Source of the DNA: Sphaerosporella brunnea
Lineage: Eukaryota > Ascomycota > Pezizomycetes > Pezizales > Pyronemataceae
Length of the DNA stretch: 64,000 nucleotides
NCBI GenBank assembly: GCA_008704415.1
Contig: VXIS01000152.1
Span: 1 to 64,000 of the forward strand
Reading direction: 5' to 3'
A program made the position numbers and the translations under genes. The notes under the pieces are model-generated. The model did no database searches, was not told the DNA's origin, and worked only from the letters and a program-made list of their open reading frames with translations. Shown here in pieces: positions 37,702-64,000 of the stretch. Every line of letters begins with the position of its first letter. The first letter of the stretch is position 1.

Positions 37702-38032
37702 ATGTGGAAGGCGGTGGAAGAGGGGAAGAAGGGGAGTGGAAGAAGGGGAGGACGCTCACTCCCATCAAGGTCCTGTTGGCAGACAACCGCCGTGCTGGGT
37801 TTCCTAGCATGCACTAAAGTCGGGTCCTGGCCCGAGAGGCCAAGAATGTAATGACCGTTCTGATCGTGTCCCTCTCTTTTGTCTATCACTCTCCTGTCAT
37901 CTCCTTATCTCCTCTTTTCCTTTAGACACACGCGTCTGTGGACCTCTGGGGTCCAAGGGCAGTCTATTCTCCTCCTGTATGTTATTTCATGGCCGCAAGC
38001 GGCCGAATACATTATGATTAAAACAAAAAAAA
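37702..38032 (+). mobile_element. 5'-truncated Tad-like LINE, copy 1 (331 bp)
   Basis: The element contains only the end of the reverse-transcriptase ORF and the 3' UTR. Coding scraps in two frames read MWKAVEEGKKG, TPIKVLLADNR and VLGFLACTKVGSWPERP, matching the tail of copy 2 (LWKAVAEATHKG, SVKDLLADGR, IMAFLGSTNVGMWPSK). The 3' end has the hairpin GGCCGCAAGCGGCC at 37991-38004, then ATTATGATTAAAAC and an A run. It is flanked by AGAGCCGTTCGGCCA (37687-37701) and AGAGCTGTTCGGCCA (38033-38047). This 15-bp duplication has one CpG-site C/T difference and marks target-primed insertion. Confidence 0.85.
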
Positions 38033-41378: not shown

Positions 41379-41617
41379 TTATGCGGCGGTCGGATATTCC
41401 GAGCATGCCGAGCACTTGATGTGTCCACACTCATGGCATTGCGGTTGAACTGCGAACAGCATGGGGCCCTCAAGAAGGCCGGTGCGCTGCAGGCACTCAT
41501 GACAAAACCAGGCGACTTCCGGCTCCATGAGGATGATGATAAGGGTGGGTGGGTATGTTTAGCGGTTACTAGGGGACGGTTAGTTTCATAAAAAGTCATT
41601 GAGGTAAAGTGAGACAT
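41379..41617 (-). CDS. Cys/His-rich miniprotein A (WFCH...CxxCxHxxCxxC family)
   Basis: Function unknown. Exon 1 is 41570-41617 (MSHFTSMTFYETNRPL) and exon 2 is 41379-41522, joined in phase after removing a 47-nt intron (GTAACC...GGAG, branch-like GCTAAAC); 63 residues. The spliced protein has AWFCHECLQRTG, then EGPMLFAVQPQ, then CHECGHIKCSAC near the C-terminus. This gives two zinc-binding-like clusters, WxCHxC and CxxCxHxxCxxC. CGHIKCSAC is identical in miniprotein C. A second in-frame Met could be the start (MTFYETNRPL). A TATATAA element on the minus strand at about 41707-41715 lies about 95 bp upstream of the ATG. The intron is short with an unusual GGAG acceptor, so the exon 1 model is the weaker part. 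Confidence 0.62.
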
Positions 41618-44412
41618 ACGAGGTGTTTACAGCAAGACAGATGCTGATTTCTAAGCGGGTGTGTGCACTCAGCTGCTGGCAAGATTGCGATGAATCGATC
41701 TAGGGTTTTATATATCTTCCTTTATACCGCGCCTGGAAGTTCAAAGACACACTCGTCTAAGGAGCCCAGAGAGGTAACAGTACAGATGCGCAGGTAATCT
41801 GCCTCGCGGTGATTGGCCTTGTTTTCTTCAGCTAATGTTGACGGGCTCTCTGGGCAGATAACCAGTAGTAAAAGAAGGCCCTGCCCAACCAACCCACTGT
41901 GACAAAGTACTAATAATCGGGCCCCGGCTTATAACGCTTTTCCTGGCAAGCAGATTGCTAATTGATAAGGGGGGATTTTTGGGATCTGTAGTCACGCAGC
42001 CCAGTCACGCGAATATCTCAACAGAGAATCTTTAACCAAACATAGTATCAGTTATGCGAAGTCTGTTATCGCCTTTGTCGTGAATGCTGGAAACTATGGG
42101 GCTTACCCCGGGTTCTCAAGTGTATTTGGTATTCATGACACTCGAGAGTGGCTCTCAACATTGAGAAGTTTGCACTCAATGGCAACTAGAACCAATGACG
42201 TGAATGTGAATGCGCCCGCTTTTACAAAGCTGCACATCATCAGCATCCTGAAAATTTGCGGTGGCGCGGGTTTCACCTCAATGTTAGGGTGTTTGCCTGG
42301 GCTCATGACACTGGCTTTTCGGACGAGGCTCTATATTGCGGATGGAGATACAGTTGAATCGCAACTCGGCTCAGAAATACAAAACGGTGAATTAGGAGTG
42401 GATACGCTATAACCTCACGTTCATTGGTGTATCAAGCCACGCTGCCGCTAAATATTCAGTTAAGGGACTGATTCTCCGCACCAATCGTCTGCGGACGAAA
42501 CAATATTCTTTTTGCCGTTGGTCGAAAGAACCTTCTACAGCAAAAAGATATATATCCCAATAGCCTTCCTGGGTCGGCTACGAATCGGGTGGCTGGTTGT
42601 TTAGTCACGTTTCAGTTTTCTGGGGCATGTGAGCACGAAATTGCGTGGACTCGAGCTCAACCGCATGGCGGGATGAGGTCGGCTCGTTTCCAAGGGTCGA
42701 CCCGAGTTCGCTTGCTCCCGCTAATGGAATCATATGCAGGGGATATGTTTCCACTTGTGAAGCCTGCATGCTGCAAATCAGAATTGCTTTCAGTGTGTGT
42801 TGGGGGCCACGAATGGAGGCAAATGGAGGGGGGTTGCTCATACTGTAGTCATTCACGCATATGGAGGCCCTCAACAGACGCACAATCCAAGATTGGCGTT
42901 CAGGTGCGATGACAATTCATTAGGAGGTCCTGCCTGAAGATATTGTAGCAGTCACCTTTATAGCCTGCTCACCGTTATGCCTGCCTCAGATACCCGAGAT
43001 CATACAGTCACAAAGCCTCCGCATTGGGCTGTATGGTCGGATATCGATACTCTGCCAGGTGATCAAACTCGATCATCTCGCACAATATACCCGAGCCTAG
43101 AAAGTTAGTAGGCTGAGTGATGGACTCTACAGTTAGGGACTGCAGGTGAGGGGAAATCAGACGACATGCGAGATATCCTCATGGCTTCAGCTTAACTATA
43201 AGGCAGAAGGCAGACAAAAGTCTGGTGAAGTTCTTTTGCATTGGGTGTTAGAAACGTTGAATCTTCTTGGGAGGCGATACAACTCAATGGGCGATTGGTT
43301 CTCACTGGCCGAGACTACACTCTCAGATGCCTTCGCATGGTCCGAGGAAGATTGCTGTTGGCATCCCTTAAGCAGAACCAGGGATGATTCAGCTTCAAAG
43401 ATCACCGAGCTTGCAAGGCGAGCCAATATACAAGCCGTAAAGGCTTCATTCAGGAAGATCGAAGCGGTGACCGCCCGCAAAGCCTAACATGACTGTGCAG
43501 CTTCTAAAACCACAGAACTCCATCAGAAAAACCACTGGCTTTGGGTGTACACCACGTGTCATTTTGGCAAACCGCCAGACTCTCAGACTGAGAGGCAGAA
43601 TTTGTCCAAAGCAAGCTGTGCGAGCCACACACGTGCACGAGCAGGCTGAAGGCACTTCGCTGGTTATCAGGCTTTGCAGGCGATTTTTCTTTTATATATA
43701 TCTAGGCTGATCACGGCTTACAAACGAGCCGGAACCCTCCCATGCAGTGGCGAAGAAGATTTCTGCCGTGGTTGTTGTCCGTCAGCCTGCGCACCGCCAC
43801 ACCATAAGTGTGATAGTTGCCGCGCAATCACGCGCAACTGTCGATATCGTAGGCGCTTCCTTGACAGCGATGGGCTTGCCATTCAAACTGCCGGTCAGAG
43901 GAGTTCTAAGGAAGGCTATCTCTAAATTGGTTCTCCATGGAGGCTCGAATCGACGGTATGTAGTCGTACGGATTTGGTCGGTGAATTGAAACTAGCGCCG
44001 TACGCGCGAGATGTGGCTAGCCCCTCATTATGTAATGCAGAATTCATTACGCGATATCTGTCAAGGACCGAAATTCACAACACCCGTTAAAGTAGGCATA
44101 CCGGTAACAAGTACTTATGTGAGTATGGTTATGTATTCACTTAACGAGAATCATAAAAAACCCCCCCCCCCCCCCCCAAAAAAAAAAATGCTCGCTTTTA
44201 GACCTAGTATAGTAAACACCATGATCAGGCTGACAACACCACTTGCACATCCTCGAAATTCGGGCTGAAACCCCCCAAAGGACACATGAGGACAGCCCGT
44301 GTATACTATAATCCCGAAATCAGCACAGGTATCCGAGCTGCGAACCGGTGTTCGTGGGTGTTTGTAAACAAAACAAAAAGGGAAAACATACAATCAGTGG
44401 CATGTTCATTAG
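41618..44412. other. 2.8 kb gene-poor stretch between miniproteins A and B
   Basis: No gene firmly supported. A + strand frame at 42589-42912 contains a loose Cys/His run (CCKSELLSVCVGGHEW). Another at about 43757-43835 reads DFCRGCC, then HHKCDSC, with TTATATATAT upstream at about 43691; it may be a degenerate relative of the miniproteins. The frame at 43146-43487 lacks an ATG start. A C/A homopolymer block is at 44160-44189. Confidence 0.35.
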
Positions 44413-44753
44413 CTACTCACGGGTGCACTGGTCGCAGGGCTGATGATCGCCTGTGACTGTGTCAATGAAATGATATCCTGGCATTGATGACGGCTTGTTC
44501 AATCCATACATTCGGGGCAAGAGGGCTGGCGTTTGAAGAACCAAGGTCCAGCGGCATGATCAATCATTCCGCGAGGATTGCAACAGTACCATCGCTTGTA
44601 TGAGCAATCCAGAAATGGGGGTAGGCTCGAGTTGACCGTGGGGTGCAGCATGCAGTTGGTTGGGAGCGACTACAGAGAGAATGTGAGCATCCGTGAAAGA
44701 CTAGCAGGAAACATTACTGGACTTGCCTCTCCTTCGTCACCGAGGACGACCAT
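44413..44753 (-). CDS. Cys/His-rich miniprotein B (WYCC...CxxCxHxxCxxC family)
   Basis: Function unknown. Three exons, 44727-44753, 44510-44669 and 44413-44450, join in phase to 74 residues. The key blocks are RWYCCNPRGMIDHAAGPW and SCPECDHQPCDQC, closing RE-stop. Intron 1 begins GCAAGT, a classic GC-AG donor, and ends TAG. Intron 2 begins GTATGG inside the Cys codon of CPEC and ends at CACAG; splicing there removes an in-frame TGA and recreates the C-x2-C-x-H-x2-C-x2-C knot exactly. That fit to miniproteins A, C and D is the main evidence that the model is right. There is no signal peptide or membrane segment. A CATAAATAG TATA-like box on the minus strand near 44905-44913 is upstream. Confidence 0.7.
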
Positions 44754-46149
44754 TATTGGCTACGATCCTTTGCCTGTTTAAGTCTAGAAGGGTAGCTCGG
44801 AAGACTGGCTGTTGAGGGAGGAGGCTTTTGAAGCGGGATCAATTGATCAAGAAGAGGAAGATTGGGAGTATTGTCTGGGACTTCTCGAGCGAAGGGCTAG
44901 ACGTCTATTTATGTATGACTGTCTAGAGAGCTCGCGCAGGCAACCGCCTCAAAGCACAGCAATGCTTTTTTAGAAAACTGCAATTTCCGCATGACTGCAC
45001 AGTGCTGCCCATCAGTGCCCGTACAAAAAAAATTTAAAAATTAAAAAAATACGTGACCATTGGCTCCCTAGATCGATGATCAAAACTCCGCGTGCATCTA
45101 AAAGCCAGTTTCCCTCCGAGTAGCCTAAGAGACTCCCTTAACGTCACCAACACCGCATGCCAGTGGATCTTTTGAGTTCTCGGAGCACACACATACAGAG
45201 GTGGTCGTTCGAACGTTCCCTGGCACTGACTTAGATAGTAAATAGCCAGACGTGCCGGCCCCTATCAGGATTTCGTCATCGAGCGAGGGAGTTTGTAGAA
45301 CGCTATCGTTCTTGTTCGCCTTGCAAAAACACTTAGATATGATATGAGAGAAAAAGCACAAAACGTCAAGGTAGGTACGTTGGTGTCAACCGTTTAGCGT
45401 GCAGCAAGCTTGAATTAAGCGCAGAAGCACTTGGTTTACCCGCTAATTCTGCATGCACCCTCGCTAAGCCGGATAACCAACAGGTAAGCATGCACTGACC
45501 TGGGAAGGCATATTCCCAGATTTGGGCGCGGAAGAGTTATCCAACTACATATGAAGCACGGGTGCACATTCTGGCTGGAGCACACAAAGACATTATCGAC
45601 TGTGCAGGTAAACGTAGCATAGTCCCTATGGACTCGATCCTTCTGTCCCAGACCCAAGGGCACAGTGCATCCTGCAATCGGCCCTAGGGCCTTCTAGTGG
45701 ATCTATCGAGAGATATCGATTAGGGGACGTCCCTTTGGGAAATTGTAAATTTCACTGATTGGCTCAAATAGAGCTACATAAGTACCTACTTAAGTACCAA
45801 GTCAATACTTAGGTAAGTATATCTCAGTATGTTTACATAAGTCTGTACTTTTGTAGATATAGTAGTTTATTCCCCAAATTTTCTCGGGAACCTTCACGTT
45901 ACTTCGCAATGAGACTTACGGGGGAATTTCAAATCTAGCTAGAGTGGGAGATTTGCTGTGTATGGCTCATTGCGATGTGGGCTCACTTTTCGGTTGTTCC
46001 CCTCGAAACAGTTGTAAGAAGATATTTCTGGATTTGGGGTTCACAAACTTTGAATTCCTAAAAGAAGAGAAAAAAAAAGAAACCTCCAGATAATCACTGA
46101 CTCCTCCAGGCTCCGAAGCCCCCCAAAACCCCCAACCCAGACGACAACT
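44754..46149. other. 1.4 kb spacer between miniproteins B and C
   Basis: No gene supported. TACTTAAGTA-like repeats occur at about 45780-45845, and an A/T-rich tract is at 45026-45049. Short minus-strand frames at 45125-45361 and 45436-45663 are unrecognised. Confidence 0.4.
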
Positions 46150-46482
46150 CTACTCTGTGAGACAAGCCGAGCATTTGATGTGCCCACACTCCACACAAGC
46201 GGGACACACGTCGATCAGCCAAGGTCCGGCGTAATGGTCGCTTTTGCCATAGGGGTTGTGGCAATACCACAGGGTGCCTTTTCGACTTGACGTCGTGTTC
46301 ATTGAGATTTCCGCAACGATTCTTTCGGTTGGAGTGGTCAGGTGCAGTGGGCGGAGATCCTCGGAGGCTGAATGAGAGTCCTCATTCTAAAGGCGTGGGA
46401 GATTGGTCAGTAGGAATCTTCCAGTTTGGTTTCGGTGGCATCTTATTACCAAATAAAACCTTCTCTCGGTCTGGTACTGCAT
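46150..46482 (-). CDS. Cys/His-rich miniprotein C (WYCH...CxxCxHxxCxxC family)
   Basis: Function unknown. Exon 1 is 46450-46482 (MQYQTERRFYL) and exon 2 is 46150-46386, joined in phase; 89 residues. The intron opens GTAATAAG, has a TACTGAC branch site and ends TTTAG, all standard for fungi. An acidic and polar linker (NEDSHSASEDLRPLH) leads to LWYCHNPYGKSDHYAGPW, then CPACVECGHIKCSAC. HYAGPW is identical in miniprotein D, and CGHIKCSAC is identical in A. The predicted ligands (one Cys and one His at WYCH, then three CxxC-type pairs and a His) would suit one or two zinc ions. A perfect TATATATAA lies at 46601-46609, about 120 bp upstream of the ATG. The gene is well formed, with no stop or shift. 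Confidence 0.78.
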
Positions 46483-48725
46483 GGCGTTTTCGTTGTTTGG
46501 AGGTCGGATGGAGGATGTTTAGGATAGGCTAGATGTGTTGTGTTGGTTTGTTTGCTTGTTGACTTGGTGAATACTCTTGGACGAACCGGACCTCAGCCGT
46601 TATATATAACCTCCTTGAACGCACAAGTCGAAGAAGAATGAGTGCATCTATCAGCGCACCGTGGGCAGCTGGCCTTGGTAATCCACCATGTCGAGCGATG
46701 CATCGAACCAGGCAGCATCAATTTTCCTATGAGCACACCGTAGGGCTGAGATCGAGTGTAGAACTATGTCTGCACCCCGTCTGGTCCGGGCTATGGGCAG
46801 GCTCCGAGGGATTGGAGTTAGCAACACAAAACGCTTCTTGGGGTAAGCTTGGGATAGAAGTCCGTCCTACAACTTCTTCTCGAATCACTGCCGAGGGTCA
46901 TGCCGCTCCCACTGCCGGGAAATTGCTCAGGGGATTGCACCGGCTGGTTCCAGAAGACTGCCAATCCAGTGTTCATGATGCAATCTTGCACCGTCTCCGC
47001 ATAGGCGCTGAGGCAACAGGTTCGCGATCACACATGATGGGTAAACCAATAATGGCTCGAGCCTCTGGAGAAGCACACTTTGTCATACTCTTTTTGGATA
47101 TAGCATTATTCGACGCATGGTTCGTATGGGGCTAAGCTGCACACACAAGGCTAAGCCTGTCGCTAGTGCAACGTCAAAAGTGCTGTGCTTTTGGCCGCCA
47201 GGGAAGAATTACCGGATTCGGAGAGATCTACTACTTGTCGAGAGTTGAATCCAATATTGCAAGCGACTAGACGACTGGATATGACCGGATCAAACAGTTT
47301 ATTTGCATAACCGTGCGCTCAACCACCGGTAACATAACCGAGATGCCCGGCCACGCTGCAGCCCTACGACAGCCACAACGAATACAGAGACCAAGAACCG
47401 CCAATCCAAGCAAATGGAGCGCAATATTATGGTTGTGGCATTTCTGAGAAAGAAGTCGGTAAGCAAAGTGCGCAGGAACACAGCCACACACTGGTCGTCT
47501 CCCATCTCGAATCTGGAATAATGAGAGGAAAGCGCAGTGGTAGGTGCACATGTAGGATTACCGTTAAATTGTTGAAGCACATCAACGGTGACGCTGTAGT
47601 ACTATGGAATGTCAACTTCGCGGAACTTCGTTCTCTGCAAGCGGATGTGCTTTTCGGCTGGTAGATACCTTTTTATGTCATCTGTTTCTTGTGGGTAAGT
47701 CAAGTGGCACACTCTGATCATTTCCAGTGCTTCTAGCAGCGCCTGACTTCAAAGTGCGAACCGAGTTTCCTATCTGAGCCGTTGGATTCCCAGAACGTTA
47801 ACCCAGGCCCAAAAGCACACCAGACAACGTTAAACCCTAACCACAGCCCAACCTCAGTGTGCCAGCTCCGCATCTTTCATTCAGAGCCACAATTATCACC
47901 ACGGCGGCAACCACAAGCGGAACGATGCCAATCGAACCCTCATTATCGGTCGACTGATGATAGTTTTCGATTTACGGAACCCCGAGGCCGGCCTCATATG
48001 CATGGTCATGCCTAAGCTTCTAATACCGAAATACTGCGCACACCTCGCCGGTGCCGATCCCAACCAGTGCAACCGTACAGCAAGCCGATATACTACTGCT
48101 ATATACATACCTAGTTAGTTAACATTACCGCAAGGGTCAGTAAAAACTCAGCACTGGTTGAGTTTCCAACTATGTGAGGCAGTTAGCAGGCTCCAAACGA
48201 CGACGACGCTTGGGCGTAGCAGCTGCGGTCTAGACCGGCAGCTAACTGCCTTCAGTATCATGATCTTTACGGCATGCGCCGTTTCCTCATTTCTGCCTCT
48301 GTGCCAGGGACTTGTTATTTTTTCAGCCTTATGTTTGTAGTATGGTGCTGGCAGCTATAGACCTAGTTGTCGCACGGATATTTTCGTCGGAAAGTAAGCA
48401 GCGGACACGGTGTAGATGGTGGTCAAAGGGTACGAAGTGGTGGGGACCAAAGTTCAGAGCGAACGCTGGGGCCAGGTGGACTATGACTCCAATAATCAAT
48501 TTATTGCCCATCTGCGCCTGGCTCTCGCTGTGAGACCCGCCGGTGACTGGTATAGACCCGCGCTCTGCACTCCTTGTCTCCAAAGGTGGCGCCTTCCCTA
48601 TATGCCTGGATAATGCGCTGAGTTCGTCGCCAGTATAGTGCAGGCGGCCTCAAACCGACCCATCGGCAGGCTCCGCTTGGTGGAGACAGCGACAACTGTT
48701 TATAAACTGATTACCGCGTGAGAAC
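46483..48725. other. 2.2 kb gene-poor stretch
   Basis: An ATG-started + strand frame at 46638-47135 (165 codons) runs divergently from miniprotein C. It matches nothing recognised and has no clear codon or domain signal, so it is not called as a gene. Minus-strand 48510-48560 shares about 40 bp with + strand 50074-50115 (core TCTCACAGCG), probably parts of one dispersed repeat. Confidence 0.35.
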
Positions 48726-48741
48726 TCTGGGGAAACCTCCC

Positions 48742-49215
48742 CATACCTCTTCAAGACCGGGCGCCGCGCGGACGACAGATGCTGGCTCTGCGCCTCCAAG
48801 CCAAGCCAGACCAGAGACCATCTCTTCAAGACGTGCCGAAGATGGCGAAAAGAGCAAGCCACCCTGTGGAAGGCAGTGGCGGAAGCCACACATAAGGGGG
48901 AAGGGGGCCGAAAGAGGCGGAAGACGAATACGTCAGTGAAAGACCTGCTGGCGGACGGCCGCTGCACCGAGGCTATAATGGCCTTCCTGGGCAGCACGAA
49001 CGTAGGAATGTGGCCAAGTAAGGCCTGAAACTATCTCCTTTGTCTCTTATCACGAATCTCCTTAGTGCGCCTTACTATGGTTTTTTTTTTCCTTGCTTTG
49101 TTTTCCTCCGGAGGAGCGGGCCCCAGAGTAGGCCACGTGCCTAGGGGTGGCGATGATCCTGTACCTATGCCATGGCCGCAAGCGGCCGAATGCAATATGA
49201 TTAAAACAAACAAAA
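48742..49215 (+). mobile_element. 5'-truncated Tad-like LINE, copy 2 (474 bp)
   Basis: This is the last part of a non-LTR retrotransposon. A frame from 48743 to the TGA near 49022 reads YLFKTGRRADDRCWLC, QTRDHLFKTCRRWRKEQATL, SVKDLLADGRCTEAIMAFLG, STNVGMWPSKA. The CWLC...HLFKTC pattern is the CCHC-like knuckle that ends many fungal LINE ORF2 proteins. About 190 bp of 3' UTR follows, with hairpin GGCCGCAAGCGGCC (49173-49186) and the tail ATATGATTAAAACAAACAAA. Identical 16-bp duplications TCTGGGGAAACCTCCC flank it at 48726-48741 and 49216-49231. The reading frame is still open, so this copy is younger than copy 1. Confidence 0.9.
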
Positions 49216-49500
49216 TCTGGGGAAACCTCCCTCCCGTCCCCTAAATAAGATGCGCTCTGTAAGACTGAGGACCGGGCTTCCACCAGTCACGCAATCTCGT
49301 GATGTTATAAAAGACTTGCGACGATGGATTTGGAAAGCTTGGACCATGCAAAATCGCGACGGCGTCGCTATGGCCAGCTGTCAACCGCTATGGCCAGCTG
49401 CACCGCTTAGTCTTTTCGTCGTGGTGATTTCACCATTTTTTCCGCTGTTGGCTGCCCCCAAACTCTTGAAACTACACATAGCCGCAGCCAGCAACAGCAA

Positions 49501-50185
49501 TGACGAGACCGAGCAAAAGGACCATCATTTCACGACAAGCTACAGCTATTCACAAGCGCAGGCGTCTGGCTGAGGCTGAGGCTGAGGCTGAATCACAGCA
49601 AATTGCCGGGCCTGTGTTTCCGGATGAGGTGGAGAACGAAGGAGAGGCAAAAGAGGATGACGAGGCAGAAGAGGACGACGGTGACCAGGAGGCCATGCAT
49701 AAATCCCTACAGACCTACATCAACACGTTTCAAGTCCACAATGGTGCAGACTCCGACTCGGAGCCGGAAGCAGCATCATTGCCAAAACAACCTCCACAAA
49801 CTGGACAGCAAACATGGCCTCGGGTGTCAAGACCGAAAAGAATTGAGATTCTCAAAGCGGGTATGCAACCAAGATATTATGATTGTTTACATAGATGATC
49901 GCTGACGCTGTTTCAGCCCTTGAAAACATGAAGAAGCTGCTTTTATCCGCACAGAAGTGCCCCGCCGGCCAAGATTATACCCGCCATCTCCAGGTAAAGG
50001 CCTTTATCTGTGTGCAGCTGGCACATACTGGGCTCGGCGGCCGCTGCGCAAAAAGGTATAAGGAACGGGTTTATAAGAGTCACCGGCGCGTCTCACAGCG
50101 ACAGCCAGAGGCAGACTCGGTGGGGGGCAGCAGGAACGGGGGGCGGCCGCGGCCGCGGGGGAGGCATGACGACAGGTTTACATAA
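49501..50185 (+). pseudogene. N-terminal relic of a DDE transposase gene
   Basis: An ATG at 49501 opens MTRPSKRTIISRQATAIHKR, a basic start like those of fungal Tc1/mariner-type transposases. It is followed by an acidic disordered stretch and a stop at 49896-49898. A second frame, 49895-50185, continues with ALENMKKLLLSAQKCPAGQD and YTRHLQVKAFICVQL, the start of a DNA-binding-like region. Nothing of the catalytic domain follows on this strand. The start is similar to that of the opposed element at 50420-50720 (MGRPNKRKVQSRQAG), so the two are probably related copies. It is not a working gene. Confidence 0.5.
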
Positions 50186-50419
50186 AATTTGATTCCCTTT
50201 TTCTGTCCAGGGTCCCCACCACTTCGCGCGCTTGGACCACTTTCTGCGCCCTCCGCATGCTATTAAAGTCACGGAAACTCTCAGCGACGGGTCGGTTCAA
50301 AGCTGCCTGCACCATACTTGAAAATGAGTGATGACTTCACAGACTCCAGAGCTTCAGGTACCGCCTCCATAAGACCTGATGGCTGTTAGCTACTGTTGCA
50401 CCCCCTTACTGAGGAAGGG

Positions 50420-50720
50420 TTAAATACCGGGCAGAGTGTAGTTGCCGTGCTTCCGGACATAGTGCTTGCATGCGCCCCAGTAATATTCGATCCAGTTAAG
50501 TTCGCAGTGGAACTTAGGATAGAACATTACTAGGTGTCCCGCATCCTCGAGAATCTCCTCAATCCGACTGCGCTGACCTTTAAAGTCAGGCTGCGCCGAG
50601 AGATTCACCGCCGCCGCCGAGAGACTCGGCATCGCCGAGAAAACTGCGTTTCCGAGTCCGAGATGCGCTGATGGCGCCCGCTTGTCGTGATTGTACCTTT
50701 CTTTTGTTCGGCCTGCCCAT
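50420..50720 (-). pseudogene. internally deleted Tc1/mariner (IS630)-type transposase copy
   Basis: The minus strand begins with ATG 50720, MGRPNKRKVQSRQAGAISA, a typical basic N-terminus. After about 45 codons it passes in another frame into SAQPDFKGQRSRIEEILE and DAGHLVMFYPKFHCELNWIE, then YYWGACKHYVRKHGNYTL. The motif N-W-I-E-x3-G is the region of the last acidic catalytic residue in the IS630/Tc1 superfamily. The first two catalytic Asp blocks and all sequence between are missing. This is a deletion derivative fusing the two ends of the gene. No terminal inverted repeat was picked out. Confidence 0.72.
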
Positions 50721-51500
50721 TGTGTTCAAGTTGCTGCTGGTGGAGGGTCGTTGTACCAGTGGTATACGAAGTTGGGAGCAGCCGGCATTATGGATCAAAG
50801 CCATGACGAAAGAACCTCAGTGCTTGGACCGAGTTCACCCTCAAGATATTGGCAGGTGGTAGCGTTGGCAGCTGGCCATGGCTGCGGGGCCGTGCCGTTC
50901 AGCTGGTCCAAGCTTTTCACAATCCATAATTGCGACCCCATAACCAGAGTACAACAGTGTTAAACCGGTGGGGCTGCACCACGTAGAATTATAGAGCGCA
51001 TCTTGTTTGATCGAGAAACGTGGTGTCTACTCAGAGTTCGCACGCGGGGATAACTGCGTTCATTATGGTCGTCCATCTCCACCCATCTCCACCAACCGGG
51101 GAACGAGGTTTATAAATTATAAGTGCCTGCATTATACATCACATCGACGGGAAGAAATGCCAGTATGGCCAGTTTGGTCATGATCGTACTTGGGATGAAA
51201 GGAACGGTCGATAAGCTCTCTGCGCAGAACGGAGAGCTTCTGGCTCGGCTCATGAGGGTCGAGGCAAAAGCCACAGCGACACCGGTATGGCGACCGTCGC
51301 TTCCGCCGCCGCCGCCTACGCCACGATGGGTTGTGAATGCGGCCACCCAAACGCCGCCCCCGGCCCCGCCTAGAAACAACAAACCAAAACAGGCACCACC
51401 AATCCTACAAATGAAACAAGGCGATGGATAACAAAGGAGATAAAAGTTAATTTAACGAGTGAATACCCTACACACACACCCAGACCAAACCAGCCAACGA
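50721..51500. other. spacer before the DUF7728 gene
   Basis: No gene supported. A Pro-rich + strand frame at 51123-51431 overlaps the likely 3' region of the DUF7728 gene and has no recognisable domain. Confidence 0.4.
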
Positions 51501-52692
51501 CTACTGCTTCTCCACAACCTCCAAGTCCGAAACGGGGGCGTCAACGTAGGCGGGAGGACACTCGACGTGTTCCTCCTCCTGGAGCAGGCCCTTCTCGACC
51601 TCGCCGTCAGCCTCGGCAGCAGCAAGCGCCTCGCGCTCCTGGCGCTCGCGGCGGCGATGGCAGAAGAAGCTACGGCGGCGGCGGCCAGCCTTGCAGCATG
51701 GTCCGCGCTTGAGGCCGCGGAACTTGTACCAGAGCATCAGGAAGCCGTGACCAAGGACCAGACCAATCAGCGACACCGTCATACCCGCGGCGATACCGAC
51801 AAAGATGGGCAGGAGAACCTGGGCAGCGATGCGGTGGAAGACGCCGTGGTGGGGACGGTGAGGGTGGTGGTGGTGGTGATGCTTAGGAGGAACCGCATCA
51901 AGACCCTCGACCGGGTGGTTGTCGATCTTGCCGCCGTGGTGCTTACCGCCCTTGCGGCCCTTGCAGCCACCCTTCCTGCCCCACGGCTTGCGCATGTGGC
52001 GCAGACGGAACATCATCTTGCTGATCATGCACTTGATGTTGGCGCCGCAGGTCTCGTTTTTGGGGATGGGGCGGATGGGGCCGAAGCTGAGCTCGCCGGA
52101 CGGGGACTGCAAGATGATCATCTGCAGACCCTCGAGCTTGACGGGGGTGGCATCGACGGCGAAGATGCTGAGCTCGAAGGTGTACTCGCGAGCACCGCTC
52201 TCGGTGATGACATCGGTAGTGACCAAGCGGGAGTTGTCAAGAGTGACCTGCGGGAACTTCTCACGGTCGACCATGTAGACGATTGTCGAGACGTCGTGGG
52301 GCATTTGCGTAGCGACCAGGCGCTGGTCTCCCTTGAAAGATACCGGGAAAACCTGGTGGCCATTAAGGCTCATGTGCGAGTGGTCGCCCTCTGGAAGGTT
52401 GAAATCGAGAATCTAGGGTTAAACAACTGGGTTAGCGAGGCACGCCTTTCGTCACCCCACATTAGCGGCGGGAGCTTACAATGTCCGTAGCGACCCCTTC
52501 CTCCTTGTAGTGGCAGCCATCGCAGGGAATGCGAACGACGCGCGACATGCTCATTTCTGACAGCGCGAGGCCAGCGCCGATGTCGATAGGAACGATATCC
52601 TTGAGGTCGTTATCGCTGACCTGGGGTGGGACCAAGAAGGCCGAGCTCAGCGCCGCCGCCTGGGCGAGGAGCAGGAGCGGTGAGAAACGCAT
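51501..52692 (-). CDS. DUF7728-type single-pass membrane protein with signal peptide
   Basis: Function unknown. Exon 1 is 52480-52692 and exon 2 is 51501-52412, joined in phase (GTAAGC...CCTAG); 374 residues. The first 18 residues are a signal peptide (MRFSPLLLLAQAAALSSAF). The lumenal or extracellular part holds IPCDGCHYKEEG, a CxxC-type pair, and FGPIRPIPKNETCGANIKCM, with a potential N-glycosylation site (NETC). A very basic, Gly- and His-rich stretch (PPKHHHHHHPHRPHH) precedes one membrane span at about residues 258-288 (VLLPIFVGIAAGMTVSLIGL). The tail is Arg-rich and then acidic, with CPPAYVDAP near the end. This layout matches a family of fungal type I membrane proteins that I recall as DUF7728. 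Confidence 0.78.
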
Positions 52693-55139: not shown

Positions 55140-55176
<37 letters not shown>

Positions 55177-55395
55177 CTGTTGTTGTTGTTGATGATGATG
55201 TTGCTGCTGAAGTAACGCGGCCCTAAGCTCGAGAGGGGCATTTGCGACGGCGACGCCGTTCGAACTGGCATTCTGCAATCGCGCTCGCTTTTGCGGTCGG
55301 GAACTAACGCTTTCTCCGGACGAGGTGGTCACGCAGAGAGTGGCCGACGATCCGTGCGGCGACGGGACCGCGGATGGAGGGAGATACGAGGACAT
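53706..55395 (-). CDS. GCR1_C-domain transcription factor with long polyglutamine tract
   Basis: GCR1_C is the Myb-like DNA-binding domain of yeast glycolytic activators. Exon 1 is 54691-55395 and exon 2 is 53706-54626, joined in phase (GTGAGT...AATAG), 541 residues from ATG 55395 (MSSYLPPSAV). An 18-codon in-frame upstream extension is Leu-rich and was not used. Residues 64-103 are almost all Gln with a few His and Ser. Gly/Ala/Ser-rich linkers follow. The domain lies at about residues 384-450: YKLSRSIKTVNELWQEWTKG, then PSVVYLESTYGPKWR and FYSRRKVIIEEVRKLI. The C-terminus repeats Gln runs. The target genes are not evident; filamentous-fungal GCR1_C proteins are not limited to glycolysis. 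Confidence 0.88.
55086..55205. repeat. CAG/CAA trinucleotide repeat (polyGln coding)
   Basis: On the minus strand, CAG and CAA codons run almost unbroken, encoding the Gln tract at residues 64-103 of the GCR1_C protein. A second AGC-rich block at about 55415-55455 lies upstream of the start, and a third with interruptions lies at 55610-55690. Confidence 0.85.
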
Positions 55396-57174
55396 GGTTG
55401 CGACACCGATACCGAGCAGCAGCGGCGGCAGCAGCAGCAGCAGCAGCAACAGCAGCGTTTGGCAAGACGGGGAACGGGGGACAAGAACGAGTCAAGTTCA
55501 AGTCCGGGACCAGCTCAGGCCAGCAGGACAAGACGACACTACAAGGGCAAGCACGCCGCTAGTCTAGGTGCCGCGGGAGCCGGGTTGACCAGACAAGGCC
55601 AGCAGCGGAGCAGAGCAGCGGAGCAGAGCAGCAGCAGCAACAGCAGCAACACACAGCGGCAGCGGCGGCGGCAGCAGTGGCAGCACAGCAACACCCAAGG
55701 GCGCAGGGCGGAGGATCCGACGGGGAGCGGGCGTTTTGCTGTGCTTTCGGGGGTGGCGGGCAGGGGGTGGGATTACGCTGTGCTGGGCAGTGGAGGGTGC
55801 CGGGGTTCTTGCTGGGGGGGGGGTGGGGGGGGTGGTTGTGCTGGTGGCGGTGGGGGTGGGCAGCGTGCTAAGCAGCGGATGTTTTTTTTTTGAGTCGGAG
55901 TCGTGTCGTCGCCGTCGGTGAGACGAGGGACTCGACGGCAGCATCTGACGGCGTGAAGCGTGACGGGGTCGAGTTGGTTTGGTGAGCTGCGTGTGGGCTG
56001 GGGTGCGACTGGCTGGCTGGCTGAGTTTGCCTGCGCGAGCCAGGGTGGCGCAGTGCAGCAGCAGACTTCTCCTTCTCCGCCCTTTCCCCTTCGAATTCGC
56101 ACGGGGACAGGCACACCCGCAATCGACACACACACAAGCATCCAGCACCACTTTGCGCTTTCAAACGTTCGTTTGAAGCGATGGGTAAAAGAAGTAGATA
56201 CCAGACAGACAGACAATAGACGCTCGGTCACGCGGTGGCGGTGGTGTGGGGCGGTTACGGCGGATCTGAGGCATTTATTGCGATGTCCGCTGGAAGAGTC
56301 ACACTGTCACATCTCCTGGGAGCTGGATGTGACTCTGGGGGCGGGCTCGCATCCCAAACCTGGGGAAGACGGTCTCGAACTCGAACTTGAAACCCCCCCG
56401 CCCCAACCATGATGTTTCGACAACGCTGGACCTACAGTACCTACAACTCCTTCACAGCCCATCACTCTGGATCATCACGCGTGCCCCTCCCTCGCCAAAC
56501 TGCACTTCGTGATCCCATTCGTTTCGTTGCATCTGATCCATCTGCGCCCGAGGCGAAAGTGCTTCTCAAAAAGTATCCTCAAATCGATCGCAACTGCGGA
56601 TGCACTCGTCGTCTGCTGGTGGTGCCATTGCCGCCAGCGGCAAACTCGCCGGTTCCGGGACGGGCGCGTTCCGGCTCGAGGACAGAATAGCACGCATATC
56701 TAGCCAGCCTGTGCACTCCATTCCTGCCATCAAATAGATGATAGGCGACAGCTTTGAGCTTAAAAAAAAAAAAAAAAAAAAAAAAAAACACGGGCATCCC
56801 AATTTCAAAAAGGACCAGACCAATTCTGAAAGAAAGAAAGGAAGAAAAAAAAAAAAAAAAAAGCAAAAAGCATGTTCCCTTGCCGTGTATGCATGGCAGA
56901 AAAGCCACATCAACAACCTGTTGATAAAAAATACAACCAAGCTAGGCAGACAGGACAGGAACCGTTGGATAAAAGAGAAATAACTCCATAAACAGTGCCA
57001 TCCCGGAGCATTTTCTACAGCCCAACCCATTGACGCCAAAAAAATACAGATCCAATAATTACCGATAAGCCGAGACCAATCGCCCCCAAAAAGAAAAGAA
57101 AAGAAAACAAGAATCAAAACCAGACCCATCGCTCCTGCATGGTGCATCTACAAGTACGCCAGAACTCCTCATGG
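55396..57174. other. upstream region of the GCR1_C gene and 3' end of the Pfa5 gene
   Basis: No gene supported. It holds AGC repeats (55410-55690), G-rich sequence (55815-55865), and A runs at 56762-56787 and 56847-56862. Frames here are low-complexity shadows. Confidence 0.45.
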
Positions 57175-58708
57175 TCATCCTTGAACCTTATCGTGAGTGT
57201 GTTCGACGGGTATCCCCGCCTCTTTTTTCAGTCTCGAAATAATTTCTGGATTCCATCGATAGAATCCTTGTTCACCCCCACTGCTTCCAGGCTTCGGAAC
57301 TCCCCAGAACTTGAACCAGTGCCACCAACTCCCGCCAAGAGATTCCTTGAAGTTTGCGTACGTGCTGTTTAATTTCCACGGATTCTCTCCAGGTCGCGTT
57401 CGAACAATCACATAGCACCGCTGCTCCTCCCCAGGCCCCGGGTTGGGCGGTAACCATACACGAGTTCCACTGGGCTTGTATGGATTGGAATCGATCGATG
57501 CGAAAGATGGTGCCGGTGGATTCGGATCGTGAACCGCAAGCTGGTAGACCTTCGTCTTCACTGAGAGTGAGTCAATAGTACTAACGTTGCTCCAGATCAG
57601 CTGAGACGTTGAGAATGTCATCCCGGCAGAGAAGAGAGCAAAGATACACGCCCTGCAATAACGGCTGTCAGTCTCGATCAAGTCTGGTGGTCTGGGAAAT
57701 GCATACAATACTAAAGCTGCAACCCACTTCGAATCGACATTCATACCAGCTTTATTTCGTTCGTGCATGAGAACTCCCAGCGTGACGATCAGGAACAGAC
57801 AGTAAACGGTGCCGAAAACAACGACCTGGTAAAAATATCGAAAACTGGTTTCTGCTACCACGCCGCCAACCCTTAACCCTGCGTTCAGTATTGTTTATTC
57901 CCGAGCACTTTTCGGTGCAGCAAGCATACCACGGGCAGAAATGGTCCATCCTCCACACACAACGCCCAACCTCCGAGCAGTGGTGCGCTCGATCAGGCTT
58001 CCAGCAGTCACACTTTGAGCAATATCGAGGAAGGCCATCACTTTCACATACAAAGATCTCCTTATTGAGGAACTCTTTCAGATTTGAAGGGGCCGATTGG
58101 GCTTCCGGTCTAGGGTAGGTCCATTGGCTGTACGGCCGGCCTAGGATTTGAGTAGGCGGTCCAGTCATTGTTGGCGCACCGGGGCTCGGCTGCGGCGGTC
58201 CTTCGCGCAAAGCGGTGTCGAGCGAAGTGTCCGTCATCACTCGGGCTAGACCTTCGGTAGATCCCTCCGTGGCGGTGATCCTAGCTGGTTGGGCGCTCCT
58301 TAACCCGGTCTCCAAATCGCCATCTTCCGCACCATCAACTCGCGGCTTCTCGCTCAAGTTCGCGGCGTCGTCCGTGTTGCGACCTTGCTGCACGTAGCCA
58401 GGGTTGAAGGTGAGCGTAATCACAGTGCGAAGGTATGATATCGAGAGCAATGCGAAAAAGACGAAGTAGAATGCAAAGAGCAGGGCTGCGGCCACTTTGC
58501 GTTTTCGATCGAATAGAAGATAGTGGACTGAAGGAAGTGAGTCGCGTCATCACGGGGAAACAAGATGCGCAATTCGGCTGGACTCAGGCAGATACGCACC
58601 GCAAACCAGCGACAGAAACACCCAGGTAGCATAACCCACCATGCCGGCCATGAGGAGGGGCATGGCCCGCGCAACCCAGATGTTGAGGGTGCGACGGTTC
58701 TGGCCCAT
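57175..58708 (-). CDS. PFA5: Pfa5-type DHHC protein S-acyltransferase
   Basis: Palmitoylates cysteines of membrane proteins. Exons on the minus strand are 58600-58708, 57930-58527, 57707-57871 and 57175-57652, in continuous phase, 449 residues. Membrane spans lie at about 15-35, 45-68, 250-275 and 285-312. The Cys-rich domain, about 205-238, reads YCSKCDCWKPDRAHHCSEVG, then RCVWRMDHFCPWVGG. The canonical DHHC is DHFC here, with the catalytic Cys kept; DHFC is what I recall for Pfa5 proteins. Intron 2 cuts the CPW codon just after the active site; splicing there restores VGGVVAETSF. Intron 3 is 54 nt, a multiple of three with no stop, so its retention would insert 18 residues between spans. 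The C-terminal half is cytosolic and of unknown role. Confidence 0.9.
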
Positions 58709-61700
58709 TTTTGGCGGTTGGTGATGGTCGGAGAGGAGAGTGTTCAAGATAGGAGCAGTTATTTTTTTTTGGGGGGGGGGGGGTTGGGTGAGAGTCTGGG
58801 GGGGGGAGCTGCACCAGTTTCGCTAATAGCAACTCGCACGGCCCGGGAAGGAGCTGTGGTTGCAACTTGCTAGGGTCCGGGAGCCAAGCCAGCCGCCATA
58901 CATGCAATACCGTATTATCCCGGTAATAAGGCAATGTGGCTAAGTGACTTTGCCAGGAGGCTGAGTGACTTCCCCACAGAGCGCAGTGACTTTGCCACAT
59001 TGCCTTAGTACCGAGATAATACGGTAGTACATAGGTACTTGGTACTCTACGAGATTAAGGTTCCAGACTGGATGGTCAAAACACGCAGCAACCATGCAAA
59101 TGCAAGTGGCATGCTCTTTTGACAGCTTGCGCGCGATCGTGAAGACTCTTTTTTTTTTTCGCACTTCCGTTCGGATTGTTCTGCCGCACCAGCCACCAAT
59201 CTGCCTTCCCGCGTCGCTTGCCCTGATGGCTGACGAAAAGGATGGTAACGACAGTAGTCACTCTGCTCACCCATAGATATGAATTGGAAGCGGAGCGCCT
59301 ACAATGCCTACTCTACTCTACATACATAGTATTCTACCTGTGTCCCGTCCCGCTCTAGCCAGGATGCCGCCTTGACCCATGGTCTGCAGAACAGCGATGC
59401 GGAGTGTCGATTCCCCCGCACTCCTATCGCCATCCCGCTTACTCTCAGTCCGTTTCGTCGCGAGCCGATTTGCCGTGTATAGTAGATCCCCCCCCCCCCC
59501 CCAAATCCATACATGCGAAAAGTGCCATCTCTCCCCCACCCTCTGGATATCTAAACTGGGAAACACTCAATAATCGCACAACCAGCAGAAGTCGCCGAGC
59601 GTCCACATACATATGCTACCTGTACGCACTATCCATTTCAGCCGTCCCGCATCGGTTTGCAAGCGATGTTACCATTTCCAGCGAGGCGGCGCAGGCATAA
59701 CTTGCATTCGCAGTCAGCCGTCAATGTCTGGAGGTGATAGCCTTTGACTCGTCATAACCGGTCGGCCGTATATGTTTGCAGGGCCTGTTATGGATCCATG
59801 GAAAGCTTTCACACACATGACCCTATCTAGGCCGTTAACAAGGCTACATCACCTTCCTACACTTAGGTATCCGCAACTCCAAATCCGTCACCACATGGTA
59901 ACGGAACGCCGGCAAAACAAACAACCTGGTTGTCGATCTACATATCTTGCACGCAACTTGGTGTTCATTTCGACTCAGCCACCACGCATCCGCTAAAAAA
60001 TCGGCTTTGTTTGAGGAACGGACCGGGAGAAACCTTTACCAAGACGTGCGGAACCATTGAAAATTAGGGCAACGCATCTCACCTTTGTTAAGTCCTTCGG
60101 CGCTAAAACCTTGGTCATACAGCCGCGTTTATGCTGTGAGTACATGATGGGACAGATACGCCTTCCGTGCAAGGCGAAAAGCGAGGACTTTCTTGACCGG
60201 GAAACCGGTCTGGTCGGGGGATTCCGATGATGAAGCAGGAAGCACGTCGTCTTCACCGTTTCTCATGACCTCGAGTGCTAGAGTAGAGTTGAAGCCAGAG
60301 ACCTCGAGTCACGTAAGAATATTACAGGCTTGGGCGCGCCTTGTTGGAACCTTCTTGCAGCTCTATAGAAGCCACTCGCCCGCCCCAATTTGCTCGCAAT
60401 GAATCATTGACCTGTGGAGAAAAACAGTGAGGGATTTCACGAGACTGTGAACGTTACTTCGTGCCCGCTTTTGTTGTACCCCACCCCGAAGTCGACAGTC
60501 GAATATTCGGACGTATTGTGACGCACGGTCACACAAACAACGCAGCCATATATTATGGTTCGATGTGATGTTAAACATTCACCAAAATATCTATGCAGCT
60601 GCAGCAAGCCTACGGCGTAGCACGTACACCATCCAGACCCAGGGTTAGAGAACTTCCATTAGTCTTCCGTTACACGCTCTTAGAGATATGCCTGATATGT
60701 CTGGGGAAAGCCAGATTGCTGCCCCGACTCGGTCTAAGAGTTCTGGCTGCATGGCCACGGCTAAATGAGCCCTTCTTTTGGTTGGTTAGATGGACGTTGT
60801 GAAACGCTGGTGTGGTCTGCCTCGAAGGAAACAATTGATCGAAATAGGAGATGGCCCAGACGCCATACCGTTTCTGGTACGCTCAGGCTGACGAGGCGCT
60901 CAACGTCGGCTGCATCACGCGCAATTTGTGTAACACCCGTTGTATGTGCGCGCGAAGGAGTCTTCAACTTCACCAAAGGCTTTGATGTTGGAGACCGAGC
61001 CTTTTTTTTAGCACCAGAGCTTGTGGCCATGAATGCCCCCCTTTGGGCTTTCGGTGTACTCATATGGCCAGTCCTCGCATCGGGACAACCATTTTCTACC
61101 TCCTTCAAAACACGAACTGATGCACAACATCTGGGGCTAACCCCACTACCCATCCCGCTCGGCATATTACCGTACCTGCTTATGAGCAGTGTAACCACAA
61201 GGCTCAATCTGCTGGTCACACTGTGAAATGAAGTGTATCTAGGGTCTGCAGCGAGTTTCCACCTCCATGCTGACGTTTCGACCAGTGAGCCTTCCTCACC
61301 TTCACCAACAGCAGTGCCGGCACTATAGCGGCGCAAAAAAAATGTTGTGGCTGGCCGCTAAACTTGCAAACGTGGGTTACATTGGGGCTACAATCACCCA
61401 CTGCCTCCTGCTGCGGTCCGGTTGTCCATGTCCATATGTTCTTTCTCCTCGCGCACGTCTCAATCGATCCCTGGGGATATCAAGGTGCGCGTGGAGCAGC
61501 TTATGGTGCACGGTATGTATCTTTTTTCATAACTGCATGTTCGGAAGGGAAATTACTCACTCCTTCGAAAAAAACGTTTTCACAGATATGCGGAAAGCCC
61601 CCCACCCACCGCCGGAGATTTATCGCCGTGGAGCGCAATCGTCGTCCTCAGCATCATCGTTGCGTTCCTGGAGCCTGAGAACCAGGGTTCCCGCCCCATA

Positions 61701-62497
61701 TAATATAAACCGCCACGAGGAAGGGATAAGGAGGCCAGAGAAGGCTCAACTCCTTAACATAGGGCTGGTGCAACGACGTGCGCTGCTTGGAGGTCTACCT
61801 CCGCCGGCTTCCCTACTTTGGGCTTCTGTACACAGGAAGTCCCATGTGCAGCAGCGGCAGTGCTTTTTAGCTGTCATTACACAACTTGAGCCCCGCCGCC
61901 GCCGTTTCTTGGGTTTACGCTACCCCATGCAACCGTGTTTCAGGACAGGGCGGTTGCCATCATCTTTGAGGTTAGATTCTCTTCCAGAGCACCATTGAAC
62001 GGGGCGGAGACGGGAAGGTTCCCAACGGTACACTCAACACCGAACCATCCCTAAGCTGCCTGGATGTCTCAACCTTACTGACTTATTATTGTCCACTAAC
62101 GTCTGGCAAAGGTAGCGGTGGGGCGTGCGGTCCTTGCGCTTTTTGGCCTCGCACACGGGTTGCTCTGGCCTGGGCACAAGGAAAGCGGGCTGCGGACACT
62201 GTGCTCGCCCTCTCTCCTCCTAGTACTATGTGTATGCACTCTAGGTGGCACTGCACTCCACAACGTGGTGCTCACGTTTTGAAGGTGTTCAACCAGGCAA
62301 AGGAAGTCTGGATATAAAGATCTCGTCAGATCACTCCCATTATTTCTCCATCAACTCGAGCAGCAAACTTCATCACGCATACAAACATATATCTCCCCCT
62401 CTGGAAACATCATAAAGACAGCATCCCCCTTGATATCTATTCATTCCAGCTTCACACAAACCTCTGCAACCCAAACACTATACATAAACACCTAGCC
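58709..62497. other. 3.8 kb gene-poor stretch with a foldback element
   Basis: No gene firmly supported. A T/G homopolymer block is at 58761-58785, a C run at 59489-59503, and a foldback repeat at 58911-59029 (annotated separately). An ATG-started + strand frame of 243 codons at 61267-61998 matches nothing recognised. Antisense and sense frames at 60761-61336 are both open, which suggests composition rather than coding. Confidence 0.35.
58911..59029. repeat. foldback element with 33-bp imperfect inverted repeats
   Basis: TACCGTATTATCCCGGTAAT at 58911 begins a 33-bp arm that pairs with the reverse complement of about 58994-59026, with two or three mismatches, ending GGCAATGTGGC. The loop holds three spaced AGTGACTT units at about 12-22 bp intervals. 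No coding function is apparent. Confidence 0.7.
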
Positions 62498-62931
62498 ATG
62501 TACAACAAGAACATGGTCCGCCGCGCCGTCAAGGGAGGAGAAGACATGGAGATGGTATGCAAACTCCCACTAGCATCCAATGTTCATCAGTTCTAACACA
62601 CCTCCAGCCCTCCATCACGCCAGCCCAGCTATCCGCTTCTAGTCCTAGTCATCTCCCCAGCACCAACCATGCCCAGCACTCCTCCACCACCCAGCGCACC
62701 GCACGCAATAGCCGGGCCTCGGATGCTCCTAGCCCCCCATCATCCGAAGCATCAACCAAGTCTGGTGGCCGCGGCGAACACGCCTGGTACTGCTGCATCG
62801 GCGCTGCACCCCCGGACCGGCCCGCGCACTACGCTGGCCCCTGGTTGATGGTCAACACTGAGGTGTGCCTCACCTGCCACCATCACAGGTGTCCGCACTG
62901 TACTACGATCTTTATCCCGGGTGCTTACTAG
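62498..62931 (+). CDS. Cys/His-rich miniprotein D (WYCC...CxxCxHxxCxxC family)
   Basis: Function unknown. Exon 1 is 62498-62554 (MYNKNMVRRAVKGGEDMEM) and exon 2 is 62608-62931, joined in phase, 126 residues. The intron opens GTATGC, has a CTAAC branch and ends CCAG. A Ser/Thr/Pro-rich linker of about 60 residues precedes HAWYCCIGAAP, then AHYAGPW, then CLTCHHHRCPHC, close to the C-terminus (TTIFIPGAY). HYAGPW and the final knot tie it to miniproteins A-C, 16-21 kb away on the other strand. GATATAAAGA at 62311-62320 is a TATA-like box about 180 bp upstream. This is the best-formed member of the family: clean splice sites, clear start and no damage. Confidence 0.8.
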
Positions 62932-63912
62932 ACGCCCGCTTGCGCGCTTGCGCGGCTGTTGAGGAGTTGTGTGACATGCGGCCACGAAGGTAGTTGCACA
63001 CGAATACACCCCCACGTTGAGACCCAAGGCTTTTTTTTTTTTTTTTTTTCCTTTTGCATAGAAATTTCCTGTTACTTGCTATTCTAGCCCTAGCTAGAGT
63101 CTCGCTGATAAAAAAACACAAAAACAGCTGCTTTACGAGAGATCATTTCCTATTCCCTTGTCCCTTACATTTTTGATCGATATCTGCTTTTTAGACGTCT
63201 AGACCAGCCACTGCTTTTTAGATTTTTTTTTTAAATTTTTTTTTTCTCACTATAGATTTCCAAGATCCTTCAACTTGCAACATTGCAACGATAAATCGAC
63301 AGAAACCCTATGTGTCTTTTTTGCGATAGATTTCCTTTGCTTTGCATGTTTTCTTTCCCCTTAATTACACAACCCACGGGAAAAAAAAAAAAAAAAGACT
63401 AGCTAGATGGATGTTGAGACTAACTGCCGGGACGTGGAGTTTTTTGGCATATATTTAATGAACGTTAGGATTTACGGCTTAGAGGGGTAGGTTTTTTTTC
63501 TAGCCTTTTTTTTTTCGTTTTCGTTTTCTTGTTTTCTTTTGTGGTTTTCTTGTTTTGTTTTGTGGTTTTGAGTTTGCTTGCATGCATGTTGTTTTAGAGC
63601 TAGAGATAGAAAATGGATCATGATGTTATGACTGTAAATTGTCTCCTGTCTGTTTTGCTGCGGTGAAAATGGAACTGATGGGCTGCTACCTAAATGGGGA
63701 TGGGATATCTCAATGCTGTTGGGGGAAAGAATGGAAGGGTGAGGCGGCCGCGCGCGGGGGGGAATATAATTAATAAAAAAAAAAAAAAAAAAAAAAAAAA
63801 ACTTCACCCCAAACGGCATCTCGTAGTGATCCGCCGTGCTTTCCAGGCAACAAAAGGCGCGCGCTCATCAATCAAGGCATGTTAACTTGCAACAATTCCC
63901 TGGCTTCCTCAG
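62932..63912. other. spacer downstream of miniprotein D
   Basis: No gene supported. T runs (63028-63049, 63221-63245) and A runs (63379-63396, 63775-63800) dominate. The 5' exon(s) of the next gene may lie within the last 150 bp, but no convincing start was found. Confidence 0.4.
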
Positions 63913-64000
63913 TTCAGGATGCCCACGCTGCCGCAGAAACTGGTGATTGCTGGATTTGTTGCTGCGGTACTGCGGAAGCCGGACACTGGGCATTGCCGGA
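63913..64000 (+). CDS. Cys/His-rich miniprotein E, partial at window end
   Basis: A frame opening after TTAAC...CCTCAG (acceptor AG at 63911-63912) reads AETGDCWICCCGTAEAGHW up to the window edge. WICCCG followed by a Gly-His-Trp spacing resembles the WYCC part of miniproteins B and D. The downstream CxxCxHxxCxxC half would lie beyond the window. The upstream exon is not identified and the frame is incomplete, so this is tentative. Confidence 0.4.

What the first reader, a model, noticed from the sequence alone, without database searches (positions are those of the whole stretch)
41379..64000. Unrecognised family of tiny spliced Cys/His-rich genes, five candidate members in 23 kb
Seen in sequence: four complete models (63, 74, 89 and 126 residues; A 41379-41617, B 44413-44753, C 46150-46482, D 62498-62931) and one partial (from 63913). 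They share W-[YF]-C-[CH], a GPW/GPM block and a terminal C-x2-C-x-H-x2-C-x2-C. HYAGPW is identical in C and D, CGHIKCSAC in A and C. Linkers and N-termini differ widely, so selection seems to hold the metal-binding knot only. All have a very short first exon and an upstream TATA-like box. A-C lie together among transposon relics. Inference: a rapidly diversifying group of small zinc proteins, overlooked because each coding exon is short. I recall similar WxCC...CxxCxH motifs in uncharacterised fungal proteins, so the motif may not be new; the clustered array is the interesting part.
Basis: partly seen in the sequence, partly recalled or inferred. Interest (0 to 1): 0.82.

Follow-up and report, generated by a model that had tools for sequence, protein, structure and literature searches.

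The report
Small fungal zinc-binding domain genes
A cup-fungus-like genome carries several tiny genes for an uncatalogued, probably metal-binding domain, which also ends some larger fungal zinc-finger proteins; it is a real but modest family, not an exotic array.

Summary
The core observation holds: A, B, C and D encode one Cys/His domain, W-[YF]-C-[CH] ... GP[WM] ... C-x2-C-x-H-x2-C-x2-C, absent from 150 shuffles, with third codon positions diverging fastest. Candidate E is not a member. Models C and D are plausible; B needs a second intron inside the domain; A lacks a CAG/TAG-acceptor model and may be a 49-residue ORF. Six copies in this genome are firm (A-D, F, H) and three tentative (G and a tandem pair, I/J). 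No Pfam family matches the domain above cut-off. It is also the C-terminal tail of C2H2-type proteins of Trichophaea, Geopyxis and Tuber and of gene H here: hhalign 98.4%, score 66, against at most 35.5 with only ligand columns kept. C is closest to a 61-residue protein from another source. Nothing shows a recent local expansion, though A and C share a 29-base match, so an older local duplication is possible. Best reading: an intracellular, perhaps two-zinc, protein-binding module that occurs alone and as a regulator's tail. Function is inferred only.

The parts
41379..41528 (-). Gene A: 49-residue ORF MEPEVAWFCHECLQRTGLLEGPMLFAVQPQCHECGHIKCSACSEYPTAA; a longer 63-residue model from 41617 needs a GAG acceptor
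44413..44753 (-). Gene B: exons 44753-44718, 44669-44510, 44450-44413; 77 residues; second intron splits the CPE|C codon of the zinc motif; first intron lacks a CTRAY branch site
46150..46482 (-). Gene C: exons 46482-46450 and 46386-46150; 89 residues
62498..62931 (+). Gene D: exons 62498-62554 and 62608-62931 (spliced by eye); 126 residues with a Ser/Thr/Pro-rich linker before the domain
63913..64000 (+).
48711..50725 (.). Transposon relics beside the A-C group: zf-RVT-like frame (48711-49025 +) and DDE_3-like frame (50423-50725 -), both below Pfam cut-off

Best explanation
A-D are real small genes, each ending in one copy of an uncatalogued fungal domain, probably zinc-binding. The same domain forms the C-terminal tail of some Pezizales C2H2-type proteins. 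Shown: the shared domain, its profile similarity to the C2H2 tails, no C2H2-finger match in the A-D stretches, and divergence fastest at third codon positions. Inferred: about eight Cys/His ligands (C, C/H, the H of HYAGPW or HAAGPW, C, C, H, C, C) hold two zinc ions; A lacks that H but has an extra Cys (CHEC), as if one ligand were swapped for another. The starts of C, D, P0001 and I show no signal-peptide-like stretch by eye, and Cys/His metal sites suit a reducing compartment, so the proteins probably act inside the cell. The domain probably works as a protein-protein adaptor: in the C2H2 proteins it recruits a partner, and in the stand-alone proteins it binds the same kind of partner alone.
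For: Motif not by chance. Similarity beyond the metal skeleton: hhalign of the five-row small-protein alignment A1 against the five-row tail alignment A4 (P0003, P0004, P0007, P0009 and H) gives 98.4%, score 66.0; with eight ligand/Trp columns kept and the rest shuffled mean 23.1, maximum 35.5 in 60; all columns shuffled maximum 17.9 in 60. tblastn of whole P0003, P0004 and P0007 on the window hits A, C and D through the tail (E 8e-6 to 0.011). P0001, a 61-residue stand-alone relative from another source. Per site, positions 1+2 differ less than position 3 in 10 of 10 gene pairs. C-domain model from 12 sequences: best mean pLDDT 79.7, against 64.3 from 5.
Against: No transcript data; the adaptor role and zinc binding are untested. 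Only one stand-alone relative was found among 5.8 billion sequences, in word-limited searches. In tblastn, B was hit only weakly (best E 0.044 among the C2H2 proteins), P0059 hit only A (E 0.092) and P0028 hit none of A-D; composition correction was off, which flatters Cys-rich matches. The same holds for the pairwise scores. The third-position test uses an alignment made on the protein. The five structure models spread from 79.7 to 44.7 mean pLDDT, pTM 0.56. Foldseek found no PDB match at E <= 10 for the better model; the VIA second look then had one chain to compare, without result. Only 10 of the 120 listed hits of the C2H2 query match a loose tail pattern, so the tail is not general in that family as annotated.
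Confidence: 0.55

Rival explanations
1. MicroProtein-type regulators: the stand-alone proteins compete with the C2H2 proteins for the tail's partner and so damp their activity.
For: Single-domain proteins similar to one domain of a larger putative transcription factor, in a genome that has such a gene (H, contig C128).
Against: A-D are only distantly similar to the tails of P0003, P0004 and P0007 (24-42%), which argues against a shared binding surface; no partner is known.
Confidence: 0.15
2. Relics: tail exons of lost C2H2 genes, drifting in a gene-poor stretch.
For: A has no good splice model and B's first intron is weak; the stretch has little other coding signal and transposon relics lie nearby.
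Against: Intact frames, complete ligand sets, third-position excess, 62% identity of C to a protein from another source, TATAWA upstream of A, C and D. No finger match within 41-47 or 62-64 kb; the finger-like matches elsewhere were weak and far away (e.g. P0028 and P0059 at 30.6-30.7 kb, E 0.37 and 0.83).
Confidence: 0.15
3. Fast-evolving secreted effectors of the fungus.
For: Small, Cys-rich, variable N-termini, repeat-adjacent location.
Against: No signal-peptide-like start in the models of C and D or in P0001, by eye only; Cys/His metal-site layout rather than disulphide knots; similarity to the tail of putative nuclear proteins.
Confidence: 0.05

Closest known systems
C-terminal tail of Pezizales C2H2-type proteins (Trichophaea hybrida P0003, Geopyxis carbonaria P0004, Tuber borchii P0007, Tuber magnatum P0009)
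   Same: W-[YF]-C-C ... C-x2-C-x-H-x2-C-x2-C close to the C-terminus; profile similarity
   Different: A-D show no C2H2 fingers and are 49-126 residues long; they carry GPW/GPM where P0007 and P0009 have GPY and P0003, P0004 and H lack a GP there
RING finger (zf-C3HC4)
   Same: C-x-H-x2-C-x2-C core; weak profile matches (F: E 0.015 to zf-C3HC4; RNF4 chains E 0.26-0.37)
   Different: the last C-x2-C pair of a RING is absent; scores below cut-off; no fold match
FYVE / FYVE_2 zinc finger
   Same: C-x2-C-x4-C-x2-C spacing (that this suits FYVE_2 is recalled); weak profile matches from A (FYVE E 0.021, FYVE_2 0.17) and from the P0003 tail (FYVE_2 0.078)
   Different: below cut-off; only about 40 residues; the one Slp4 zinc-finger match of the poorer model had E 8.9

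Membership tests
C2H2-tail domain (uncatalogued; defined here by alignment A4) | W-x-C-[CH] followed by C-x2-C-x-H-x2-C-x2-C | tested here: met
   A-D, F, G, H, I (B and H after removing a predicted intron); J has one residue fewer between its first two Cys of the last block; E fails
C2H2-tail domain (uncatalogued; defined here by alignment A4) | position at or near the C-terminus | tested here: met
   B and C end three residues after the last Cys, A within seven, D within nine; G does not meet it, 61 residues follow in its frame
C2H2-tail domain (uncatalogued; defined here by alignment A4) | profile similarity beyond ligand spacing | tested here: met
   score 66.0 against at most 35.5 in 60 ligand-preserving shuffles, for A1 (A, B, C, D, F) as a set
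C2H2-tail domain (uncatalogued; defined here by alignment A4) | binds zinc | not testable with these tools
   no metal modelling; ligands conserved only
RING finger | eight ligands ending in C7-x2-C8 after C-x-H-x2-C-x2-C | tested here: not met
   B, C and P0001 end three residues after the last Cys of the motif
RING finger | Pfam score above curated cut-off | tested here: not met
   F 15.6 bits against 21
FYVE / FYVE_2 | Pfam score above curated cut-off | tested here: not met
   A: FYVE 15.4 against 27.8, FYVE_2 12.5 against 27.2; P0003: FYVE_2 13.6 against 27.2
Secreted small cysteine-rich effectors | N-terminal signal peptide | tested here: inconclusive
   read by eye only in the models of C and D and in P0001; no signal-peptide program was run

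The most novel reading that the evidence does not exclude
The small genes are fungal microProteins: stand-alone copies of a C2H2 regulator's tail domain that gained their own promoters and introns and now tune that regulator or its partner, perhaps in fruiting-body development.
Probability: 0.12. Interest if true: 0.6.

Novelty: new variant of a known kind. Interest (0 to 1): 0.36.

Why it matters
It describes a domain that the held Pfam copy does not match above cut-off and ties a set of tiny, easily missed genes to the tails of C2H2-type proteins, giving gene finders a profile to use. It also gives a concrete test for part of the 'orphan gene' excess reported for Pyronema confluens (PMC3778014, passages seen), where many orphan genes are upregulated in sexual development.

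Tried and rejected
Rejected: E as a member. Dropped after inspection: C155 (E 1.07, incomplete motif) and C501 (E 0.026, two stops inside). Rejected: multi-copy transposon cargo, since no second copy of 40.9-47.2 kb was found. RIP-like decay is not pronounced: composite index -0.81 to -0.02 in the eight 1-kb windows from 40 to 48 kb. dN/dS among copies was not computed: only 11-22 of 37 codons share a residue and synonymous sites look saturated.

Led nowhere: the first structure model (pLDDT 64.3) gave three Foldseek hits, E 7.7-9.6, and VIA on four chains none; the second gave no Foldseek hit and VIA had one chain. PDB sequence search with A4: 0 hits. A DNA search of D in the plasmid collection found nothing and was of little use for a fungus. 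Paper search for spellings of the motif: 0 papers. Eight other paper searches, several with capped listings, listed nothing that by title and abstract start describes this domain; only listings were seen, except passages of PMC3778014. 'Not in print' is only as good as these nine searches. No tool named the organism; Pezizales is inferred from the best hits of gene H.

Full report
What is there. The window is bases 1-64000 of contig C60 of a 50.6-Mb, 640-contig assembly. On the minus strand at 41.4, 44.5 and 46.2 kb and on the plus strand at 62.8 kb lie four reading frames with W-[YF]-C-[CH], a GPW or GPM block, and C-x2-C-x-H-x2-C-x2-C. In B the last block is complete only after removing a 59-base GT-AG intron that cuts the second Cys codon. 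Regular expressions for the full motif gave 3 hits in the window and 0 in 150 dinucleotide shuffles; the W..GP part gave 4 and 0. Across A, B, C, D and F, third codon positions differ at a higher rate than positions 1 and 2 in 10 of 10 pairs, and 92 of 151 comparisons of degenerate codons for a shared residue use different codons. The alignment was made on the protein, so this is support for coding, not proof.

Gene models. C (46482-46150) has a 63-base intron with a CTRAY branch site, phase 0, 89 residues. D (62498-62931), spliced by eye, has a 57-base first exon, a GTATGC..CAG intron with CTAAC, and 126 residues. B has three exons and 77 residues; its first intron has no CTRAY site. E fails: past the window edge its frame has no GP block and no C-x2-C-x-H. 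TATAWA lies upstream of A, C and D, not B; 354 of 5000 random 300-mers have one.

Copies in the genome. Ten protein queries on G000 give six copies that I call firm: A, B, C, D; F on C32 (WYCHNPTKRDTHYAGPWWLLKEFKTCLECGHSRCSAC); and H on C128, the end of a C2H2-type gene, whose query returns A at E 5.6e-5. Three are tentative, accepted on the motif. G on C618 lies inside a 251-residue frame (E 0.023-0.025 from P0001 and C; its own query found only itself). I and J on C518 are 0.6 kb apart and 73% identical (I: E 0.009 from H; I's query returned J and, at 0.026, A). Two weak hits, on C155 and C501, were inspected and dropped. The tool calls such counts lower bounds. I/J is the only clear recent tandem duplication seen. 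Among the A-D gene regions the only DNA match was 29 bases between A and C, and no second copy of 40.9-47.2 kb was found.

Relatives elsewhere. An alignment search found one 61-residue stand-alone relative, P0001 (E 2.9e-16; 19 candidates); a second round found only the same one (7 candidates). These searches need shared 5-residue words, so absence is weak evidence. Searching with part of gene H found 675 proteins, 120 listed; the best are from Trichophaea hybrida and Geopyxis carbonaria, with Tuber next among the named ones. This places the genome near Pezizales by inference. Of those 120, 5 match a strict tail pattern (P0003, P0004, P0007, P0009, P0094) and 10 a loose one (adding P0028, P0059, P0073, P0108, P0121, among them Lasallia and Xylariales); two more have only the last block (P0010, P0106). 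The other 108 match neither. Of the 12 proteins read in full, some (P0020, P0045, P0053, P0077, P0098) end in ways that look like shifted or truncated models, so absence of the tail is not proven there.

Is H a C2H2 protein? Its finger scores in Pfam are below cut-off (zf-C2H2_jaz 18.8 against 22.6), as in Trichophaea P0003; in Tuber P0007 zf-C2H2 is above it (26.3 against 25.2). The label rests on that family.

Is the tail the same domain? hhalign of small-protein alignment A1 against tail alignment A4 gives 98.4% and score 66.0. Keeping eight Cys/His/Trp columns of A4 and shuffling the others gave mean 23.1 and maximum 35.5 in 60; shuffling all gave maximum 17.9. tblastn of P0003, P0004 and P0007 on the window hits A, C and D through the tail with E from 8e-6 to 0.011; B is hit weakly, P0059 hits only A at 0.092, and P0028 hits none of the four (composition correction off). 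No finger match fell within 41-47 or 62-64 kb; weak ones lay elsewhere (30.6-30.7 kb, E 0.37 and 0.83). So A-D do not look like C2H2 genes with missed exons nearby.

What it might be. Pfam has no match above cut-off over this domain. Weak matches point to RING and FYVE_2 zinc fingers, but the last ligand pair of a RING is missing. The better structure model (best pLDDT 79.7, others down to 44.7, pTM 0.56, 12 sequences) has no Foldseek match at E <= 10. By residue count, two zinc ions and eight ligands are plausible; in A the His before GP is lost and a second Cys in CHEC is present. That swap is an inference from the alignments.

How it most likely works. The domain sits at or near the C-terminus of the small proteins and of the C2H2-type proteins (G is an exception, with 61 residues after it). 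The economical reading is an intracellular protein-binding module. MicroProtein action on C2H2 regulators is the bolder reading; microProteins are described as single-domain relatives of larger proteins in plants and animals (abstract starts of PMC6003976 and PMC4807768, seen in the listing). Nothing here tests it.

Context. Transposon relics (zf-RVT, DDE_3, both below cut-off) lie at 48.7-50.7 kb, outside the A-C stretch. The Pyronema confluens genome paper (PMC3778014; passages seen) reports many orphan genes, with more than 20% upregulated in sexual development, and warns that some short ones may be annotation artefacts. Small genes like these could contribute to that class; this is a suggestion only.

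Noticed in passing
L041/L040 (contig C518, 15731-16596): Tandem pair I/J of the domain, 73% identical; J has C-L-C-K-H where I has C-G-P-C-G-H, one residue fewer between the first two Cys.
   Followed up: partly
window 48409-50250: Nested inverted repeats (48409-48448 with 50211-50250; 48511-48560 with 50066-50115) around transposon-like frames: a possible element with terminal inverted repeats.
   Followed up: no
window 37983-38032, 49166-49215, 41243-41277: A GGCCGCAAGCGGCC-centred element in three places, one inverted and lying about 100 bases 3' of gene A.
   Followed up: no
window 51374-51712 and L002 2185-2460: A dispersed repeat giving the frame TNPTNETRRWITKE in both places.
   Followed up: no
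window 58902-59032: A 48-nt inverted repeat, 88% complementary, 35 nt between the arms, near a frame at 57752-58495 with a DHHC-type (here DHFC) motif; that name is recalled, not from a call.
   Followed up: no
L026 (contig C618) 275-1794: Copy G lies in a 251-residue frame beside a 332-residue one, with 61 residues after the domain; Pfam finds nothing in the 251-residue frame.
   Followed up: partly
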